NCBI GenBank assembly: GCA_021773135.1
Contig: JAJFKP010000001.1
Location: forward strand, 1 to 35,087
DNA from: Woeseiaceae bacterium
Lineage (GTDB): Bacteria; Pseudomonadota; Gammaproteobacteria; Steroidobacterales; Woeseiaceae
Direction: 5' to 3'
Length of the DNA stretch: 35,087 nucleotides
A program made the position numbers and the translations under genes. This document shows, one piece after another, positions 6,016 through 33,032 of this stretch (positions are counted from its first letter, which is position 1; each line of letters opens with the position of its first letter). The notes beneath the pieces are model-generated. The model saw only the letters and a list, made by a program, of their open reading frames with translations. It ran no database searches and was not told where the DNA came from.

Positions 6016-6768
6016 ATGAGCAGATTCCGAGCTTCGTTTATTCATTTATGTATTAGTGCAGTGCTCGTGGCTGCCGTGCTCGGCATCATATTGAAAGTGT
6101 GGTATCCGGAGCCGTTGCTTGAGGTTGCGGGGGCGTTTCCGGTGGTTCGGCTGCTGGTACTGGTGCACCTGGTGATCGGACCACTGCTGACGCTGGTGGT
6201 TTATTTGCCAGGAAAGGCGGGGCTGAAATTCGACCTGACGGTAATTGGAATCTTGCAAATTGCCGCTCTTTTTTATGGCTCTTACAGGCTCTACGATGAA
6301 AAGCCTGATTACCTGGTGTTTGCTATTGATAGAGTGGAATTTCTTTCCTCCAAGCAGATTGATGTGTCGGCCATGCAATTTGACGGAACCGACACGGAGC
6401 GATACGCCAAACTTCCGCAGGTGTTTGCCAGGCCTCCTGAGAATCCCGAGGAACATCGGCGATACCTGGCAAGCCTCACGACCGGGCAACCCGACCTGGA
6501 AAGGCGTGCGGAATATTGGGAGCCGTGGGCTGCCGGCGCTGTAGCCATTCGCAATCGAGTGAAGCCTATTGACGAGATCGAAGTGTCCTCTGACCGGGAG
6601 CGCGAGAATATTCGTTTGGCAATCGCCGAATTTGGAGCTTCACATCCCAATCTTGGGGTACTTCCGATCGGCGGTATTCAGAGAGATTTGGGCATGCTGA
6701 TCGATCGAGATACGCTGGAAATACTCGATATGCTTGACGCCAACCCATGGCCTTTGGATGCGTCCTGA
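6016..6768 (+). CDS. TfpX/TfpZ-family type IV pilin accessory protein, copy 1
   Basis: 250 residues. The N-terminus MSRFRASFIHLCIS leads into about three membrane segments (roughly 8-27, 40-62 and 72-92), with the family-typical pattern WYP...RLLVLVHLVIGPLLTLVVY and GKAGLKFDLTVIGILQIAAL. A soluble domain of ~150 residues follows, presumably periplasmic. In Moraxella and Acinetobacter such proteins assist assembly or stability of the major type IV pilin and are usually encoded next to it; no pilin gene is present here. It is colinear, without length change, with the next gene. AGGA eight bases before ATG supports the start. The family call rests on the N-terminal half; the C-terminal domain is not recognised beyond its paralogue. 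Confidence 0.75.
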   Translation: MSRFRASFIHLCISAVLVAAVLGIILKVWYPEPLLEVAGAFPVVRLLVLVHLVIGPLLTLVVYLPGKAGLKFDLTVIGILQIAALFYGSYRLYDEKPDYLVFAIDRVEFLSSKQIDVSAMQFDGTDTERYAKLPQVFARPPENPEEHRRYLASLTTGQPDLERRAEYWEPWAAGAVAIRNRVKPIDEIEVSSDRERENIRLAIAEFGASHPNLGVLPIGGIQRDLGMLIDRDTLEILDMLDANPWPLDAS

Positions 6769-7115: not shown

Positions 7116-7868
7116 ATGAGCAGGTTTAAAGCTTCTCTTATTCATCTATGTATTAGTGCCTTACTCGTGGGTACAGTGATCGGCATGGTTTACTGGATCT
7201 GGTATCCGGCGCCGACGCTCGAAGTCGTCGGTGCCTTTCCGATTATTCGGCTGCTGGTATTGGTCGACCTGGTGATTGGCCCGCTGCTGACGATGATCGT
7301 TTATGTGCACGGCAAGCCGGGACTCAAATTTGACCTGACGGTCATCGCCTTATTGCAGATTGCCGCTCTCGTCTATGGCTCCCACAGGCTCTATGAAGAA
7401 AGGCCGGAGTTCCTGGTTTTTGCTATCGATAGAGTGGAATTTGTTGCCGCCAGGCAAGTTGACGAATCGGCTATTGACTTCGAACTGACCGACGCAGCGC
7501 GTTTTGCCAATCTCGTCCAGGTATTTGCCAGACTCCCGGAAAGTCCCGCAGCCCATCAACGCTACCTTGAAAGCATTATGGCGGGACAACCGGATCTGGA
7601 GAGGCGCGCGGAGTTTTGGGAGCCCTGGGCTGCGGGTGCCGATGACATTCGCAAGCGAATTAAGCCAATTGACGAAATCAAGGCGTCTTCGACGAGGGAA
7701 AGCGAGAACATTCGTCAGGTAATCGACGAATACGTAGATCTGCATCCCAATCTTGGTGTACTCCCCATTGGCGGTATCGAGAGAGATTTGGGCATGCTCA
7801 TCGATCGCGAAACGCTGCAGGTGCTCGATGTCCTCGACGCTAATCCCTGGCAGTCGGATGAGTCCTGA
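7116..7868 (+). CDS. TfpX/TfpZ-family type IV pilin accessory protein, copy 2
   Basis: 250 residues, exactly the length of the preceding paralogue and alignable to it without gaps. Shared stretches include IHLCISA, RLLVLV-LVIGPLLT, GLKFDLTVI, VFAIDRVEF, GQPDLERRAE-WEPWAAGA, HPNLGVLPIGGI and RDLGMLIDR. Three N-terminal membrane segments precede a conserved soluble domain. Conservation of the C-terminal half in both copies suggests both are functional products of an older duplication. Divergence is scattered (hydrophobic swaps in the membrane segments, charged swaps in residues 110-150), which fits two proteins serving different partners, for example two pilins. ATG is preceded by AGGA nine bases upstream. 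The family name is inferred from the membrane half. Confidence 0.75.
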   Translation: MSRFKASLIHLCISALLVGTVIGMVYWIWYPAPTLEVVGAFPIIRLLVLVDLVIGPLLTMIVYVHGKPGLKFDLTVIALLQIAALVYGSHRLYEERPEFLVFAIDRVEFVAARQVDESAIDFELTDAARFANLVQVFARLPESPAAHQRYLESIMAGQPDLERRAEFWEPWAAGADDIRKRIKPIDEIKASSTRESENIRQVIDEYVDLHPNLGVLPIGGIERDLGMLIDRETLQVLDVLDANPWQSDES

Positions 7869-12242: not shown

Positions 12243-14417
12243 CTAGGCCTGCGCGCGTTTCTCGTTGATCAGCAGCAACAGTTCGGCAGCAGCCTCCGCA
12301 TCGCAGAGGGCACGATGGTGTTGCCTGAGTGGAATATCGAATGCCCGCGTAAGCGCCGCGAGACTGTAGGACCTGTGACCGGGATACAGCCGTCGCATCG
12401 AAGCACACGTGCACAGCTTGGCATGCCGGAACGACCGACCCAGGCGCTTGCACTCCGCCGCGATAAATCCATAGTCAAACTCGACGTTATGCGCGACAAA
12501 TATTGCGTCTTCCATAAACGACTCAAACTCGTCGGCAACATCTGCGAAGTACGGTGCATCGGCGACCATTTCGGGCGTGATGCCAGTGAGCCTGGAAATA
12601 TTGGACGGTATGTTGCGCTGCGGGTTAAGCAAGGTCTGAAACTGATCGACAACCTTGCCGCCCCTGACCTTGACGGCACCAATTTCCGTGACGCGATGGT
12701 TGGCGCCGCGCCCGCCGGTGGTCTCAACATCAACAACCACGTAGGTCTGTTGCGGGTCCAGAACCCATTGTACGCGCAGAACCTCTGCGCGGAAGCCGGC
12801 ATCCCGTAACTGCCTCAATCTAAGCAATTGGTTGCGACGCAGCTGGTCACCTTCTGTTTTCACCTCGACAAAGCGTATCCCTTTGTCATCAACGACCATC
12901 AGGTCCGGATAACCATAGCGAGCGGCGACATAATCCTGGCACAGTCGCCGCAATATGACCGTGAGAGCATCACTGTCGGCATGATCGATTAACGAGAAAA
13001 CCGCATCGTTCAACGACTGCCGCCAGCGAAACACGCCATTGGGCGTACCGTAGTAACGGGTACTCACTTTGAGCAACTGCCGTTTTGTAGCGACCGGATC
13101 GCACAGCATGGCTAATTTCACTTCGAGCACGTCCTGATTCCTCGCATAGAACGAATTGTTAGTAAGCGCCGCTGGCAGAAATTCAAACGGAGAATTAACG
13201 CTGGCTCCGGCGTCAACAAACAGTTCATCCCAGAACAGCAGGCCGAAGAAGGTTCGCCAAAGCTGATTCTCTGTACGAAAGGCGGTAATTCCCTGTTTTT
13301 CGAAATGTTCTACCACCGCACGTTCCGGGGATCCGCTTCTGGACTCATCGATTTCGATTGATTCGCCGGCACGAAGTGCATCGGTCACCATGGACGTCCG
13401 CTTTTTCTTGAATTTTCGCTCGTATATGTCTCGCGCGACCAGCCATTCTTCATCGCTGCGCGGGTCGTCAAGACATTTTTCGAGAAACGACCTTGCGGCT
13501 TCACGCTGGTCGTTACCCAGCAAAAGCCTGGCCGTTCTTTCGCTACATTCTGCCGATTCTCCCTGCTCAAAAAATGCCAGAGCGATATCGATCATGTTGC
13601 CGCGTTCTGCTTTCCGCCCGAGTTTGCACGCAAGCTCATCGCGCAGAGCCGCACTGCCGGGGAAATTCGTTTCCGGCCACTGCGCAATTTCTGCTCGCAA
13701 GGCCGGCAACTCTGTCTCGGTAGTCGCCTTGAGTGATCGGATGCGGGTTGCGAAATAATAGTGCTCAAGGGCCTCGGTACGGTCGCCGAAACGAGGTTCA
13801 TAGGAATCGCTGAGACTCTGCGTTCGTACCAGCCCAAGATCACGCATGGTAAACGCCGACAGCCCATCCTGTATGCGGCCAAAGAACAGGTACAAGAGAT
13901 AGTGCGTGGCGTCGCTGCGCCGTTGCACGACCAGGCGTGACAGGTCGAGGTCATCGATGAACGCCTCGGCAGAAACGTTTTCGCGCACAAATGCCAGCAA
14001 TTCACTTTTTTTGAGCGAGCGGCCCAGTCCGGCGTGTTTCGGCAGCAGCGCCTTGTAGATTTCACTTTTTGTCAGGAATCCCAATACGTCAGCGAAATGC
14101 AGCACGGTGGGACTTCCGATCCAGCCTTTCTCGCGCAGTTCAGATAGTAACGGCCGGATCTCGCCAAGCTCGGGATAACGCAAACGGTTGACGGCGAAAA
14201 TACGCCCTTTGCGATTGACCAGGCGGACATAGAGACACTGCGCTTCCCGTGAAAGATCTTTAAACTCATTCAGGAATGCGATATGGGTGTCGAACAACGC
14301 GTGTTTATAGTGCTCTCCGACAAATTCAAGCATCTCCACGAAATGCTCGTGGTAGTAAAATGTCGGAAGCGGGCGCCGCTGCTGCACAGGCACCCAGTGG
14401 GTCTGGTCATAATTCAC
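12243..14417 (-). CDS. FAN1-type VRR-NUC nuclease fused to a DEDDh 3'-5' exonuclease
   Basis: 724 residues, against ~550 for bacterial FAN1. The N-terminal ~550 residues follow FAN1: helical region, then RNQDVLEVKLAMLCDP (426-441) and the VRR-NUC core GYPDLMV...FVEVKTEGDQLRRNQ with likely metal residues D505, E518 and K520. FAN1 is a structure-specific nuclease that unhooks DNA interstrand crosslinks. After a short linker a second nuclease starts at ~559: VVDVETTG (D563, E565), HNVEFDYGF (D648) and H701-x4-D706 complete a DnaQ-type DEDDh exonuclease like DNA polymerase III epsilon. All metal ligands of both domains appear intact, so both should be active. The start is GTG without a clear ribosome-binding site; a nearby ATG is out of frame. 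Confidence 0.9.
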   Translation of the reverse strand: MNYDQTHWVPVQQRRPLPTFYYHEHFVEMLEFVGEHYKHALFDTHIAFLNEFKDLSREAQCLYVRLVNRKGRIFAVNRLRYPELGEIRPLLSELREKGWIGSPTVLHFADVLGFLTKSEIYKALLPKHAGLGRSLKKSELLAFVRENVSAEAFIDDLDLSRLVVQRRSDATHYLLYLFFGRIQDGLSAFTMRDLGLVRTQSLSDSYEPRFGDRTEALEHYYFATRIRSLKATTETELPALRAEIAQWPETNFPGSAALRDELACKLGRKAERGNMIDIALAFFEQGESAECSERTARLLLGNDQREAARSFLEKCLDDPRSDEEWLVARDIYERKFKKKRTSMVTDALRAGESIEIDESRSGSPERAVVEHFEKQGITAFRTENQLWRTFFGLLFWDELFVDAGASVNSPFEFLPAALTNNSFYARNQDVLEVKLAMLCDPVATKRQLLKVSTRYYGTPNGVFRWRQSLNDAVFSLIDHADSDALTVILRRLCQDYVAARYGYPDLMVVDDKGIRFVEVKTEGDQLRRNQLLRLRQLRDAGFRAEVLRVQWVLDPQQTYVVVDVETTGGRGANHRVTEIGAVKVRGGKVVDQFQTLLNPQRNIPSNISRLTGITPEMVADAPYFADVADEFESFMEDAIFVAHNVEFDYGFIAAECKRLGRSFRHAKLCTCASMRRLYPGHRSYSLAALTRAFDIPLRQHHRALCDAEAAAELLLLINEKRAQA

Positions 14418-14643
14418 GTTGATAATGTAACAAACGTAGCGACGGCTTTTCGACCGAAAATAGAACCAGGCAGTTTGTAAACGGGGCCGGCGTCAGCTTG
14501 TCACTAAATCGACAATAGGTGAGGACCTGGCGAGCCGCCTACGTAACAGCGCACGAATACTGTCCAGCTTATGCTCGATAGATTGGCCGAGCGGTGTGAC
14601 ACAAGGTAGAGTTGTTGCTCGTTGATTTCTTAGGACTTCTTGA

Positions 14644-16272
14644 GTGAAGCGCCGTTTTTCAAGCTTGTTACCGCTACTTTTGCTCGACTTACTGGTGTCG
14701 GTAAGCCTGGCTCAGACCGGCCAGGAAGCAGACTCAAGGCCCAATATCCTTCTAATTGTCGCAGATGACCTTGGCTACGCCGACGTTGGCGCGTACGGCA
14801 GCGACATCAACACGCCTAATATCGATTCGCTGGCCGCCGCAGGCATGCTGTTTACCCACTTTCATACCGGACCTTCCTGCGGGCCGACACGCGCCATGCT
14901 GATGAGCGGCAACAATAATCACGTAGCGGGCATGGCGCGGCAACTCAGCATCGGACTGCTCGGTTCACCGGTGCGTGGCTATGAGAACAGCCTGTCTGAT
15001 CGTATCGTGCCCTTCCCAAAGCTTTTGCAGTCGGCCGGTTACGACACCTACATGGCCGGAAAGTGGCACCTTGGGCTCAATGTTGAAAAAAGCCCGCACG
15101 CCGCCGGTTTCACGCGTTCGTTTGCGTTGCTCGATGGCGGCGGCAGCCACTTTGATGCCAGGGGACTTCGAGAGGGGGGCAATTCGTTCCGCGAAGATGA
15201 GGTATTGGTGACTTATCCGACGGGCCGATTCTCCTCAGAGTTGTATACAGATCGGCTAATAGGTTTTATTGACGAAGGCAAAAATAACGACAAACCGTTC
15301 TTCGCGTTTGCCTCATATACGGCGCCGCACTGGCCACTGCAGGTGCCGGATGAATATCTCGACATGTACGCGGGCCACTACGATGACGGCTATGATTCGC
15401 TGCGAGAACGCCGTTTCAGGTCGCTGCAGGAGGCTGGCATCATTCCGTTGACGTCGGAACTGCCGCCACGAATTGACGCGATCACTCCCTGGGACGATCT
15501 TAGCCCGGACCAGCAGCGCTATGAATCACGAAAAATGGAGCTGTATGCCGCTCTTCTGGACAATCTGGACGATAATATCGGCCGCCTTTTTGATTACCTG
15601 AAGGAAAACAACCTGTTTGACAATACGCTGATTGTTTTCATGTCAGACAACGGAGCGGATGGTGGCGACCAGTATGAACGTGGCCCGTACAAGGAATATC
15701 TCCGCTCACAGTTCGACAATTCCTATGACAAGATGGGTACGTCGGAATCATTTGTAGCCTACGATGCGCCCTGGGCCGAAGCCGCCACTGCCCCGTTTCA
15801 TCGTTTCAAAGGTTATTCCCGCCAGGGAGGCATCGTGTCAGCCATGATCGCCGCAGGCCCGGGTGTCGCCAGTCGCGGCGTAATTGATTCCACCTACCTT
15901 ACCGTCATGGATATTGCGCCAACCTTTCTCGACATCGCTGGCGCAGAGTACCCAATCGATGCTGCAATCGAACCCATGGTCGGCGAAAGCATGGTGGCGT
16001 TTCTTAGCGGTCGTACGGATTCCGTTCACGACGACGACTATGTGACGACAATGTTCCATCGAAGTCATGCATACCTGCGGCAGGGCGACTGGAAAATCTC
16101 CAATCTGAATCCGCCATTCGACGAGTCCTCATTTGAGCTCCACAATCTGCGGGAAGATCCGGGCGAATCAAGAAACCTCGTGCAGGACGAGCCCGAAAAA
16201 CTGGCAGAACTAATTGCACTATGGCGTCAGGAAAGGAAACGATTCGGCATAATCCTGCCAGAGGATCTTTGA
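14644..16272 (+). CDS. Exported sulfatase (arylsulfatase family S1)
   Basis: 542 residues starting at GTG, with AGGA eight bases upstream. A signal peptide covers about 1-23 and cleavage near SLAQ is likely. The sulfatase signature C-x-P-x-R is CGPTR (79-83), where C79 would be converted to formylglycine; the metal-binding DD (41-42), the GKWHLG block and FMSDNGADGG are also present. It probably hydrolyses sulfate esters in the periplasm, for instance from algal polysaccharides or aryl sulfates. The activating enzyme (FGE-type) is not in the window, nor are polysaccharide lyases or transport genes, so it is not part of a visible utilisation locus. It is transcribed divergently from the FAN1 fusion gene across 226 bases. 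Confidence 0.9.
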   Translation: MKRRFSSLLPLLLLDLLVSVSLAQTGQEADSRPNILLIVADDLGYADVGAYGSDINTPNIDSLAAAGMLFTHFHTGPSCGPTRAMLMSGNNNHVAGMARQLSIGLLGSPVRGYENSLSDRIVPFPKLLQSAGYDTYMAGKWHLGLNVEKSPHAAGFTRSFALLDGGGSHFDARGLREGGNSFREDEVLVTYPTGRFSSELYTDRLIGFIDEGKNNDKPFFAFASYTAPHWPLQVPDEYLDMYAGHYDDGYDSLRERRFRSLQEAGIIPLTSELPPRIDAITPWDDLSPDQQRYESRKMELYAALLDNLDDNIGRLFDYLKENNLFDNTLIVFMSDNGADGGDQYERGPYKEYLRSQFDNSYDKMGTSESFVAYDAPWAEAATAPFHRFKGYSRQGGIVSAMIAAGPGVASRGVIDSTYLTVMDIAPTFLDIAGAEYPIDAAIEPMVGESMVAFLSGRTDSVHDDDYVTTMFHRSHAYLRQGDWKISNLNPPFDESSFELHNLREDPGESRNLVQDEPEKLAELIALWRQERKRFGIILPEDL

Positions 16273-30291: not shown

Positions 30292-32733
30292 CTACCGAAT
30301 TCTGGCTGCAATGCCGTCGAGGGTCCCGGCCAAAGCCGTTCGCCGCTTGACGGTTTGCGCATCGTTTCCATTCGCATCCAGGTTCGCCGCTAACGTTGCA
30401 AGCCTGGTCGCAAGGTTGCGATCTCTGCCGCCATTTTCGAGGCGCGCCGCAGCGCGGTCCAGCGCTGCATTCAGGTCGGACCGCGAGGAATCGGACAGCG
30501 CTCCGCTGCGTGCCAGCTGATCGATATATGCACGCGCGACGACTGGCTCGTCGGGCCAGGTTACGGGGAACTGCTGCTGCGGGTTAAACAATTCTCCCTG
30601 GTTCGCAATTTTTGCGGCCGCAATTTCATTCTCAGTGAGATGCTCACTGGGCACCAGGGACATCACGTCGAGGCCGCGCGCGATTTCGGTGGCGTAAATC
30701 AGGCCTTTATACCAGTACGTTGACCAGTAGCCACCCAGGATCAGGTGTTCCTCATGAATCGGACCACGGTCAAAGTAGGCAATCTCGACAGGATTTGATG
30801 AATCCGTGAAATCAATGACGGAGAGCCCACCCTGGTACCAGGCCTGCGCGAAAATGTCGCGACCCGGAACAGGTACGACGGAGCCATTGTGCGCCACGCA
30901 GTTTTCCTGCTCGACCTGTGGCGCCGGCAGTTTGTAATAGCTTCTGAACTCGAGCTTGCCGTCAACGATGTCGTAAATAGCATCCGCACCCCATTCCTTA
31001 GGGTCATAGGTTCGACAGCGCGGACGGGCGCCTCCGCCCCACTCGTCCGTGAAGAGCACCTTTGTGCCATCGTTGTTAAACGTCGCCGAGTGCCAGTAGG
31101 CAAACCCCTTGTCAACGACCTCATCCATGCGGGTCGGTTTCAGGGGATCGGAAATATCGAAAATAATGCCGTTGCCCGAACACGCGCCAGCAGCGATTCC
31201 TGCTGCCGGAAACACCGTAATGTCATGACACTGGTTGGTCAGGTTGGTCTCCTGGGTATCCTCCCCGTGATCACCACCCTGCCACAATCCCGCAAGACGT
31301 CCGGTCTCCGGATCCGCGAACACTGCGGGGCTGTCAACGATTCGGGCCTTGGACGGGTCGTCGACCGGAATTTCTATGACGTCGATGCGGAACAGCGCGG
31401 TTCTCTCATCACCGGGAATCTCACCAACACAGCCTTCCAGCTCTTCACCATCCCGTACCGAAGAGGTACCTGAGTTGTAAACAATTATCTTTCCATCTTC
31501 ATCGGGACCAGAAACGATCGAGTGAGTGTGTGAGCCACGGCAGGTTTGAACCTGACCTACCTGCATCGGTCGTGCCAGGTCGCTGATATCGAAGATGCGA
31601 ATGCCGCGGAAGCGCACCGGGCTAACATCCTGATTGATGCCCTGTAGGCCGCAGTCGACCCTGCCACGTGTCTGTTCCACCGACATGATGAGGAGGTCAC
31701 CTACAATTGAAACGTCACCCTGGCCGCCCGGGCAGACCACCGAACTGTAAAGCTTCGGCAAGCCATCCTCCTGCAGTTGGTACACGTTGAAACCGTGGTA
31801 ACTACCGGTGACCATCTTGTCACCGGAGAACGCCATATCAGTGTTGGAGAAACTCAGGAGCGGCGACCGTTCGCCCCACTCTGTGTCATCAACGCTCTGA
31901 CCATCGTCGTCCGTGGACTGATTGGAATCCTCCGGTGGCTTCGCCGGCGGCAATCCGGCAGGATTTTGCGGGTCGAAGAACCCCGGTGGCTTGGGCAATG
32001 CAGCCACGAGCTCCAGGTTCATCAGCGCCTGGCCCGCGTCCTCAAATCCCGGCGAGAGATCCGCCCTGGCATCGCCGGACAGGCTGGCCAGCATCGCATT
32101 CATGCGTTCGATCTCGGACGTCTGGTCATTGGTGACGTCGTTCGTGAACTCGAACAACACGGGATCGTAAGCTGAGCCGGGCTGTTCAAGCAGTTCCTCA
32201 ACCATCTTCACAGCACCCTCGTGATGCGCAATCATCAGTTCGAGGAATAAGCGGTCAAAATCCGTGCCCTCGACCTGTGCGAGCTCGGCCATTTGCTCTG
32301 GCGACGCCATGCCGGCCATTGTATGAGACGTGTGCATTGCATCGTGCTCGGTTGGATCTGGCACCTCTTCACCGCGATCCCGCAACCATTGCTGCATAAA
32401 TTCAATCTCATCAAGCTGCGACGCGTCAATGCGCCCGGCCACATCCAGCAATTCCTGGCGATTCGTGCGATCCGCCACGAGTGCGGCCATCTGTACCGCC
32501 TGGTTGTGATGCGGAATCATGTCCTGCATGAACAACACGTCGTCGGGCGAATGGCTGGTATTGGCAATTTCGATTGCCTCGTCGGCGCTTAACTGCTGCA
32601 CCGTTTCGCCCGGGGCGCCCGGCAATATGATGGGGACGTCCTGGCCGAAACTGGCACTCGCAAGACCAAGCAGAATCATGCTCAGGAATACGCGAACAGA
32701 TTGTCGAATAGTGGAATCAGGGGCTGCGGTCAC
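30292..32733 (-). CDS. Secreted DUF305 domain-LVIVD repeat beta-propeller fusion
   Basis: 813 residues from GTG at 32733, where AAGGAG lies eight bases upstream; a GTG at 32742 abuts that site and is less likely. A signal peptide ends near ASASFGQ. Residues ~50-220 are DUF305, a helical domain with paired histidines in MIPHHNQAV (75-76) and MIAHHEGAV (170-171) and a Met/His-rich loop HDAMHTSHTMAGM, suggesting copper or other metal binding. After an acidic, proline-rich linker, residues ~285-690 form LVIVD-type propeller repeats (IRIFDISDLARP, IIFDISDPLKP, LSVIDFTDSSNP) with many cysteines. A helical tail follows. It probably works in the periplasm or on the surface. Two DsrE-like genes follow it. 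Confidence 0.82.
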   Translation of the reverse strand: MTAAPDSTIRQSVRVFLSMILLGLASASFGQDVPIILPGAPGETVQQLSADEAIEIANTSHSPDDVLFMQDMIPHHNQAVQMAALVADRTNRQELLDVAGRIDASQLDEIEFMQQWLRDRGEEVPDPTEHDAMHTSHTMAGMASPEQMAELAQVEGTDFDRLFLELMIAHHEGAVKMVEELLEQPGSAYDPVLFEFTNDVTNDQTSEIERMNAMLASLSGDARADLSPGFEDAGQALMNLELVAALPKPPGFFDPQNPAGLPPAKPPEDSNQSTDDDGQSVDDTEWGERSPLLSFSNTDMAFSGDKMVTGSYHGFNVYQLQEDGLPKLYSSVVCPGGQGDVSIVGDLLIMSVEQTRGRVDCGLQGINQDVSPVRFRGIRIFDISDLARPMQVGQVQTCRGSHTHSIVSGPDEDGKIIVYNSGTSSVRDGEELEGCVGEIPGDERTALFRIDVIEIPVDDPSKARIVDSPAVFADPETGRLAGLWQGGDHGEDTQETNLTNQCHDITVFPAAGIAAGACSGNGIIFDISDPLKPTRMDEVVDKGFAYWHSATFNNDGTKVLFTDEWGGGARPRCRTYDPKEWGADAIYDIVDGKLEFRSYYKLPAPQVEQENCVAHNGSVVPVPGRDIFAQAWYQGGLSVIDFTDSSNPVEIAYFDRGPIHEEHLILGGYWSTYWYKGLIYATEIARGLDVMSLVPSEHLTENEIAAAKIANQGELFNPQQQFPVTWPDEPVVARAYIDQLARSGALSDSSRSDLNAALDRAAARLENGGRDRNLATRLATLAANLDANGNDAQTVKRRTALAGTLDGIAARIR

Positions 32734-33032
32734 GGGCGTCACTCCTTATTTAGAATTTGTATTTGGGTCGCCGGTCCTTTATTCAGGGTAATTTACCAGA
32801 TTGGCGAGCAGAGGTGCTGGAAACGGCGGTCACTCCCGGTCATTCGAAGCGGCAATCCCCGAATTTGCAATTGGTCGGGCGCGACAAGGTCGTGACCAAC
32901 AGTCGCTGCAACTCTTGAGTTATCAGGTGCTCCCGAGCTCCGCCGGGCAACGTGATTCAAGTGTTTTTTCATGGCGTTGGAATCTGCCAAAACCATCAGG
33001 CTGACGCGAAAACTTTGTTGTCGCAGTCGAAT
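32734..33032. other. 299 bp region between nhaR and the DUF305 gene
   Basis: I see no gene. It holds a palindrome near the DUF305 start (32787-32797), a hairpin at the nhaR stop and presumably the DUF305 operon promoter. Confidence 0.45.
32787..32797. promoter_or_regulatory. Palindrome GGTAATTTACC upstream of the DUF305 operon
   Basis: GGTAA-T-TTACC is a perfect 11-base palindrome 54 bases before the start of the DUF305-LVIVD gene, in a position suited to an operator. No regulator is assigned. Confidence 0.25.

What the first reader, a model, noticed from the sequence alone, without database searches (positions are those of the whole stretch)
12243..14417. FAN1 nuclease and DEDDh exonuclease on one polypeptide
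Seen: a complete VRR-NUC core (D505, E518, K520) followed after ~40 residues by a complete DnaQ-type DEDDh set (D563, E565, D648, H701, D706). Known: FAN1 unhooks interstrand crosslinks by stepwise incisions near 5' flaps; DEDDh enzymes degrade DNA 3' to 5'. Inference: one protein could incise and then trim or proofread, a combined crosslink-repair machine. Ordinary bacterial FAN1 ends before the second domain.
Basis: partly seen in the sequence, partly recalled or inferred. Interest (0 to 1): 0.7.

Follow-up and report, generated by a model that had tools for sequence, protein, structure and literature searches.

The report
FAN1–DEDDh exonuclease fusion, SOS-linked subfamily
A bacterial relative of the human DNA-crosslink-repair nuclease FAN1 carries a second DNA-trimming enzyme fused to its end; the fusion is a conserved protein type found in several bacterial groups and, in many relatives though not visibly in this organism, sits behind a DNA-damage switch, which suggests a two-step DNA repair enzyme.

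Summary
Confirmed: one uninterrupted 724-aa frame (14417-12243, minus strand) carries FAN1_HTH, VRR_NUC and RNase_T/DnaQ domains with both active sites complete. It is neither an artefact nor a one-off: 78 of the 80 named relatives kept (of 199 found) are full-length single-frame fusions, from Woeseiaceae, Alteromonadales, Alphaproteobacteria, Verrucomicrobia and Bdellovibrio-type bacteria. The junction is exactly 7 residues in 53 of 53 aligned proteins. In my tree one branch separates fused from stand-alone FAN1 (support 0.88). Stand-alone FAN1 has a DinG-type helicase gene nearby in 24 of 33 loci, fused FAN1 in 0 of 89. Fused genes often carry lineage-specific LexA boxes: 18 of 22 alphaproteobacterial, 5 of 7 verrucomicrobial, 17 of 20 Alteromonadales-type with one mismatch allowed. 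The window's own gene has none, and stand-alone FAN1 often has one (12 of 33). Best reading: a FAN1 subfamily that incises flaps or crosslinks with VRR-NUC and trims the facing 3' end with a rigidly docked DEDDh exonuclease. Architecture and boxes are shown by sequence; the mechanism is inferred. New variant of a known kind.

The parts
12243..14417 (-). FAN1-DEDDh fusion gene, 724 aa, GTG start at 14417, stop included
   Evidence: 78 of 80 named loci have it as one full-length frame
14118..14360 (-). FAN1_HTH domain, residues 20-100
   Evidence: Pfam PF21315
12765..13058 (-). VRR-NUC nuclease domain, residues 454-551, with D505, E518, K520
   Evidence: Pfam PF08774; catalytic residues invariant
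12744..12764 (-). seven-residue junction, residues 552-558, between VRR-NUC and exonuclease
   Evidence: exactly 7 residues in 53 of 53 aligned fused proteins
12276..12740 (-). DEDDh (DnaQ-type) exonuclease domain, residues 560-714, with D563, E565, D648, H701, D706
   Evidence: Pfam PF00929; Foldseek to S. aureus DinG exonuclease, rmsd 1.3
14418..14617 (-). 200 bases upstream of the start codon; no CTGT-N8-ACAG box, even with one mismatch
   Evidence: one mismatch, 200 bases; exact, 14381-14700; the genome's own lexA promoter has CTGTTTATCTATACAG

Best explanation
The gene encodes a FAN1-family structure-specific nuclease with a rigidly attached DEDDh 3'-to-5' exonuclease, used to repair replication-blocking lesions such as interstrand crosslinks or flapped intermediates. 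Shown by sequence and model: both complete active sites, a FAN1 body that matches PaFAN1, an exonuclease domain of the DnaQ/ExoDinG type, a junction of fixed length, and LexA boxes in front of many relatives. Inferred: the VRR-NUC half binds a 5' flap and incises past the branch, while the exonuclease shortens the facing 3' end (or a 3' flap), to open or keep the gap next to which FAN1 cuts, or to clean the end for resynthesis. Also inferred: the fused exonuclease is an alternative to the DinG-type helicase-nuclease whose gene accompanies stand-alone FAN1.
For: Domains and active sites. AlphaFold2 model pLDDT 90.2, pTM 0.79; best Foldseek matches are PaFAN1 on 5'-flap DNA, 1-nt and 2-nt flaps with a gap among them (5y7q E 4.3e-27, TM 0.73 by target, rmsd 5.8), and the exonuclease matches S. 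aureus DinG at rmsd 1.3. Junction 7 residues in 53 of 53; exonuclease the most conserved of five regions (0.71, VRR-NUC 0.55). Boxes in the 170 bases around the start: alphaproteobacterial GTTC-N7-GTTC exact 18 of 22 (0.07 expected), verrucomicrobial TGTTC-N4-GAACA exact 5 of 7 (background 0 of 467 windows), Alteromonadales-type CTGT-N8-ACAG with up to one mismatch 17 of 20 (1.07 expected), exact 4 of 20 (0.07 expected). The verrucomicrobial box also lies 23 bases before lexA in one of these genomes. Precedents, abstracts only: S. aureus DinG needs its exonuclease and helicase for crosslinker resistance (PMC12345164); MrfB is a DEDDh 3'-5' exonuclease for mitomycin C damage (PMC11194089).
Against: The window's own gene has no box and its Woeseiaceae-type relatives show none beyond chance (0 of 25 exact, 2 of 25 with one mismatch, 0.79 expected). 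0 of 11 same-genus genomes have the gene (8 of the 11 are under 90% complete), so it may be dispensable. No neighbour gene recurs across the groups. SOS boxes are also found before stand-alone FAN1 (12 of 33, 2.6 expected), so SOS control is no mark of the fusion. Activity, direction and substrate of either nuclease were not measured; the exonuclease could act on RNA.
Confidence: 0.6

Rival explanations
1. It is a general branched-DNA or replication-fork nuclease for SOS conditions, with no special role in crosslinks.
For: LexA boxes say DNA damage, not crosslinks. FAN1 enzymes cut flaps without any crosslink (PMC4103454 passages).
Against: PaFAN1 and human FAN1 are described as crosslink-repair nucleases (PMC9635880 passages), and two bacterial DEDDh enzymes serve crosslinker or mitomycin C resistance (abstracts).
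Confidence: 0.2
2. The exonuclease trims or proofreads the 3' end made during gap filling after FAN1 incision; it serves resynthesis and not the incision step.
For: The domain is of the family that holds the proofreading exonucleases.
Against: The fixed junction favours work on the same DNA junction (inference). In a panel of five fetched exonucleases the closest were those fused to GIY-YIG nucleases (40-45% identity). Most neighbour genes were not annotated, so a polymerase partner is not excluded.
Confidence: 0.15
3. A defence or anti-mobile-element nuclease that uses FAN1 and DEDDh parts.
For: PADLOC hits, all on the exonuclease half (PDC-S48, DEDDh, Effector). A plasmid copy in Bradyrhizobium sp. 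172 has a gene named 'GTPase-associated system all-helical protein GASH' about 3.2 kb away.
Against: The PADLOC hits cover only the DnaQ-type domain, which is widespread. No match to the FAN1 half in 50,697 phage records at E 1e-5. LexA boxes fit repair. Most neighbours were not annotated, so defence context was not tested systematically.
Confidence: 0.04
4. The fusion is an assembly or sequencing artefact, or one active site is dead.
For: Two of 80 relatives are split or cut (L114, L153).
Against: 78 of 80 full-length single-frame fusions with invariant catalytic residues.
Confidence: 0.01

Closest known systems
PaFAN1 / stand-alone bacterial FAN1 (PDB 4R89, 5Y7G)
   Same: Aligns over the whole FAN1 part with the same D/E/K set; best fold matches
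   Different: Ends after VRR-NUC; sampled stand-alone proteins are 23-28% identical to the window protein and have a DinG-type helicase gene nearby in 24 of 33 loci against 0 of 89 for fused
Human FAN1
   Same: HTH and VRR-NUC regions align; fold match
   Different: No DEDDh domain in the matched chains; extra N-terminal domains (PMC9635880 passage)
ExoDinG (S. aureus DinG)
   Same: DEDDh domain of very similar fold (rmsd 1.3, 37% identity) fused to a second DNA-repair module; crosslinker resistance needs both activities (abstract)
   Different: Partner is an SF2 helicase and the exonuclease is N-terminal; a review passage, seen cut off, says ExoDinG is not LexA-regulated (PMC11981726)
DnaQ-GIY-YIG fusions (L008-L011)
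   Same: Closest exonuclease in my panel of five (40-45% identity), also joined to an endonuclease domain
   Different: GIY-YIG domain and not FAN1; exonuclease at the N-terminal side
B. subtilis MrfB
   Same: DEDDh 3'-5' DNA exonuclease of a mitomycin C repair pathway (abstract)
   Different: Separate protein that goes with helicase MrfA (abstract)

Membership tests
FAN1 family | FAN1_HTH domain | tested here: met
   PF21315 at 20-100, 2.1e-21
FAN1 family | VRR-NUC domain with PD...ExK residues | tested here: met
   PF08774; D505/E518/K520 invariant in 81 of 81 rows
FAN1 family | SAP domain | tested here: inconclusive
   PF18081 found in one stand-alone FAN1 but not in the window protein; the region aligns with PaFAN1
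FAN1 family | overall FAN1 fold | tested here: met
   Foldseek PaFAN1 5y7q E 4.3e-27, TM 0.73 by target, rmsd 5.8
FAN1 family | 5'-flap endonuclease and crosslink unhooking | not testable with these tools
   needs enzyme assays
DEDDh (DnaQ) exonucleases | complete D-E-D-H-D set in an RNase_T fold | tested here: met
DEDDh (DnaQ) exonucleases | 3'-to-5' exonuclease activity | not testable with these tools
   needs assay
ExoDinG | SF2 DinG helicase on the same chain | tested here: not met
   no helicase domain in the protein
FAN1-EndoDinG gene pair | EndoDinG-type gene beside FAN1 | tested here: not met
   0 of 89 fused loci against 24 of 33 stand-alone loci; window neighbours are an AMP-binding enzyme and a sulfatase
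SOS (LexA) regulon, relatives | lineage LexA box in the promoter | tested here: met
   18 of 22 alphaproteobacterial, 5 of 7 verrucomicrobial, 17 of 20 Alteromonadales-type with up to one mismatch; not met in Woeseiaceae-type, Bdellovibrio-type and three other gamma loci
SOS (LexA) regulon, window gene | CTGT-N8-ACAG box in the promoter | tested here: not met
   none up to one mismatch in 200 bases; own lexA promoter does carry it

The most novel reading that the evidence does not exclude
Bacteria have two arrangements of FAN1-based repair: stand-alone FAN1 working with a DinG-type helicase-nuclease, and a one-piece 'FAN1-Exo' in which a rigidly docked DEDDh exonuclease takes the partner's place, so that one enzyme incises one strand and trims the facing 3' end from a single binding event. 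LexA boxes of three different kinds in front of the same fused gene in three groups would mean that it is a recurrent SOS crosslink-repair enzyme that has gone undescribed.
Probability: 0.35. Interest if true: 0.75.

Novelty: new variant of a known kind. Interest (0 to 1): 0.55.

Why it matters
FAN1 is studied in people for crosslink repair, and in bacteria mainly as PaFAN1. A natural FAN1-exonuclease chain with both active sites intact and a junction of fixed length, present in cultured species (Alteromonas, Asticcacaulis, Aliidiomarina), gives a way to ask what a 3' exonuclease adds to FAN1, and the absence of the DinG-type neighbour suggests which step that may be. The LexA boxes make a DNA-damage role directly testable and add a candidate to the SOS regulon of three bacterial groups.

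Tried and rejected
Frameshift or assembly artefact: rejected. Single odd protein: rejected. Phage gene: no match to the FAN1 half in 50,697 records. Plasmid gene: 14 of 72,556 records match, 356 kb to 3.5 Mb long; two were opened and hold fusions of 718 and 723 aa; the other 12 were not opened. Conserved repair operon for the fused gene: no neighbour cluster spans the groups, but I scanned only five neighbours with Pfam, so most are unnamed. Window gene as LexA-regulated: not supported; the exact motif is hardly more frequent in the own genome than its reversed control (57 against 51 sites), so it means something only by position. Bdellovibrio-type LexA motif TTAC-N3-GTAA (PMC8565304 passage): 0 of 3 loci. 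Anti-phage defence: PADLOC hits are to the exonuclease half only, but a GTPase-associated-system gene lies near the plasmid copy.

Limits of the counts. The named scan found 199 relatives and kept the best 80, so the sample leans towards the fused clade. The verrucomicrobial and Bdellovibrio-type loci are all from metagenome-assembled genomes (titles). The tree used 83 fused and 15 stand-alone rows; L114, L153, L059, L080 and L081 were dropped, L065 is a fragment, and nine fused and 18 stand-alone loci found later were not added. The 33 stand-alone loci are all from the window's own class, one of them (L069) without upstream sequence. Alignment A2 and the model used the window and 52 of the 80 loci. 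Group labels for the box counts are mine, from record titles and the tree; L135 and L136 are Oceanospirillales-type but counted with Alteromonadales. Box windows run from 160 bases before to 10 after the first aligned residue, not the true start codon. Related loci are not independent. The verrucomicrobial motif is recalled as that of Erill 2016, whose text was not held. One search read minus-strand loci in the wrong orientation and is superseded.

Full report
Observation. The window holds one open frame of 724 aa on the minus strand, 14417 to 12243, with a GTG start. Pfam finds FAN1_HTH at 20-100, VRR_NUC at 454-551 and RNase_T at 560-714. PaFAN1 chains align from residue 10 or 17 to 554 and DnaQ-type chains from about 557 to 717. 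In the own genome the only other match is to the exonuclease half.

It is a family. Among 396 genomes of the order, 38 had a match, own genome included: the window and 26 others are full-length single-frame fusions, two are fused but split or in pieces (G288, G319), one is a contig-end piece (G085), and eight are stand-alone-type or short matches. Among 369 genomes of the class, 20 had a match, own included: three more full-length fusions, one broken (G740), 14 stand-alone and one short match. Among 398 genomes of the phylum, 55 had a match; the new fusions opened as loci are L162-L170, nine genomes, four of them of another class, one of which (G786) has two copies; the remaining matches are mostly stand-alone, in frames without room for the second domain. 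In the named collection 199 stretches encoded relatives and the best 80 were kept. Of these 80, 78 are full-length fusions in one frame; L114 is split and L153 runs off its contig. Titles include Woeseiaceae, Alteromonas, Aliiglaciecola, Aliidiomarina, Pseudoalteromonas, Thalassolituus, Hellea, Asticcacaulis, Robiginitomaculum, Akkermansiaceae and other Verrucomicrobiales, Bacteriovoracaceae and Bdellovibrionaceae; the verrucomicrobial and Bdellovibrio-type records are metagenome-assembled. Three of 14 plasmid records carry an annotation at the match, 'exonuclease domain-containing protein'.

Constraint. D505, E518, K520, D563, E565 and D648 are the same in 81 of 81 rows, H701 and D706 in 80 of 81, the exception being the cut sequence. 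Between W551 and Y559 lie 7 residues in 53 of 53 aligned proteins, and the exonuclease is the most conserved of five regions (0.71; VRR-NUC 0.55). A loose tether would be expected to vary in length, so I infer a fixed docking. The AlphaFold2 model is confident (pLDDT 90.2, pTM 0.79).

Two lineages. A FastTree tree of the FAN1 part (83 fused, 15 stand-alone rows) has one branch that separates them, support 0.88, with one stand-alone protein (L066) next to the fused clade. Support is moderate and the stand-alone sample small. Near stand-alone FAN1 lies a gene for a DEAD_2/Helicase_C_2 helicase, with a PDDEXK match in one of the two scanned, the type that PMC11981726 calls EndoDinG (passages and section 3.7; the main text has no 'FAN1' or 'VRR'). 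It was found in 24 of 33 stand-alone loci and 0 of 89 fused loci. Whether fused genomes keep EndoDinG elsewhere was looked at only in the window's genome: its one Helicase_C_2 hit shows no PDDEXK match in a 533-aa frame that runs to the contig end, so a missing N-terminus is not excluded.

LexA boxes. I compared 170 bases around each start with the other 170-base windows of the same loci. Alphaproteobacterial loci: 18 of 22 have an exact GTTC-N7-GTTC or its complement, 0.07 expected. Verrucomicrobial: 5 of 7 have an exact TGTTC-N4-GAACA, background 0 of 467. Alteromonadales-type: 4 of 20 exact CTGT-N8-ACAG (0.07 expected), 17 of 20 with up to one mismatch (1.07 expected). Woeseiaceae-type: 0 of 25 exact, 2 of 25 with one mismatch (0.79 expected). 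Bdellovibrio-type 0 of 3, other gamma 0 of 3. The E. coli and alphaproteobacterial motifs are stated in PMC8565304 (passages). The verrucomicrobial motif I recalled. In five of these genomes it has 32 sites against 3 for the reversed pattern. Of 17 sites fetched, four are the fused FAN1 genes already counted, one lies 23 bases before lexA and one 35 bases before ssb; others adjoin genes without a known SOS link (an integrase, rhomboid proteins, permeases, TPR proteins, a transposase), and two had no long frame behind them. The Bradyrhizobium plasmid copy has a box 41 bases before its start. Stand-alone FAN1 also has gamma-type boxes, 12 of 33 with up to one mismatch, 2.6 expected. In P. aeruginosa PA1044 and PA1045 (DinG) are reported as directly LexA-regulated though not altered by UV-C (PMC12796719 passage); I did not establish that PA1044 is PaFAN1. 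So SOS control appears in both kinds of bacterial FAN1.

Against a simple story for the window. Its gene lacks the box although its genome's lexA promoter has CTGTTTATCTATACAG. 0 of 11 other genomes of its genus have the gene, 8 of them under 90% complete. Its neighbours are an AMP-binding enzyme and a sulfatase. The damage-induction argument reaches this protein only by homology.

Mechanism. FAN1 proteins cut 5' flaps near the branch and show 5'-to-3' exonuclease activity (PMC4103454 and PMC9635880 passages). A DEDDh domain works from the 3' end. On one flap junction the two would attack different strands: the flap strand and the facing 3' terminus. The best fold matches include PaFAN1 on 5' flaps with a gap; an exonuclease that trims the facing 3' end would make such a gap. 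This is inference. Two bacterial precedents for DEDDh enzymes in crosslinker or mitomycin C resistance are S. aureus DinG and MrfB (abstracts). The exonuclease is most like those of DnaQ-GIY-YIG fusions in a panel of five, which also pair an exonuclease with an endonuclease domain.

Novelty. Of ten library searches, seven bore on FAN1, VRR-NUC or such fusions and three on LexA. None listed a paper whose title or shown abstract start describes a FAN1-DEDDh fusion; I looked inside eight papers only, and subscription papers, among them Iyer 2006 (recalled), are not held. The parts are known, so this is a new variant of a known kind. Interest 0.55: conserved, intact, not described as far as I could see, and directly testable, but not outside known enzymology.

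Noticed in passing
L189 5158-5907 and 5983-8139 (Bradyrhizobium sp. 172 plasmid p172_1): On a conjugative plasmid an SRAP (YedK/HMCES-type) gene lies directly before the fused FAN1 gene, which has its own GAAC-N7-GAAC box at -41; a 90% identical SRAP frame lies in L164. SRAP proteins bind abasic sites (recalled), so a link to abasic-site crosslinks is possible.
   Followed up: partly
L160 5574-5879 and nine similar Alteromonas-type loci: A small gene of about 100 aa (HNH domain by Pfam in L160, the one scanned) lies 24-296 bases upstream of the fused gene on the same strand.
   Followed up: partly
L193 1862-4159, L194 1792-4110: Stand-alone bacterial FAN1 overlaps a DinG-type helicase gene in these two loci, and such a gene is found in 24 of 33 stand-alone loci; the DinG review's main text mentions neither FAN1 nor VRR.
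   Followed up: partly
L109 5185-5874: A uracil-DNA glycosylase superfamily gene lies 52 bases upstream of a fused FAN1 gene in a gammaproteobacterial draft genome.
   Followed up: no
window 30292-32742: 816-aa protein of which only residues 68-218 match a Pfam family, DUF305, at the threshold used.
   Followed up: no
window 6016-6768 and 7116-7868: Two neighbouring plus-strand ORFs of equal length (250 aa) without a Pfam match at the threshold used; possibly a tandem pair, not compared.
   Followed up: no
L008-L011: DnaQ exonuclease joined to GIY-YIG in four genomes of the order, another exonuclease-endonuclease pairing.
   Followed up: partly
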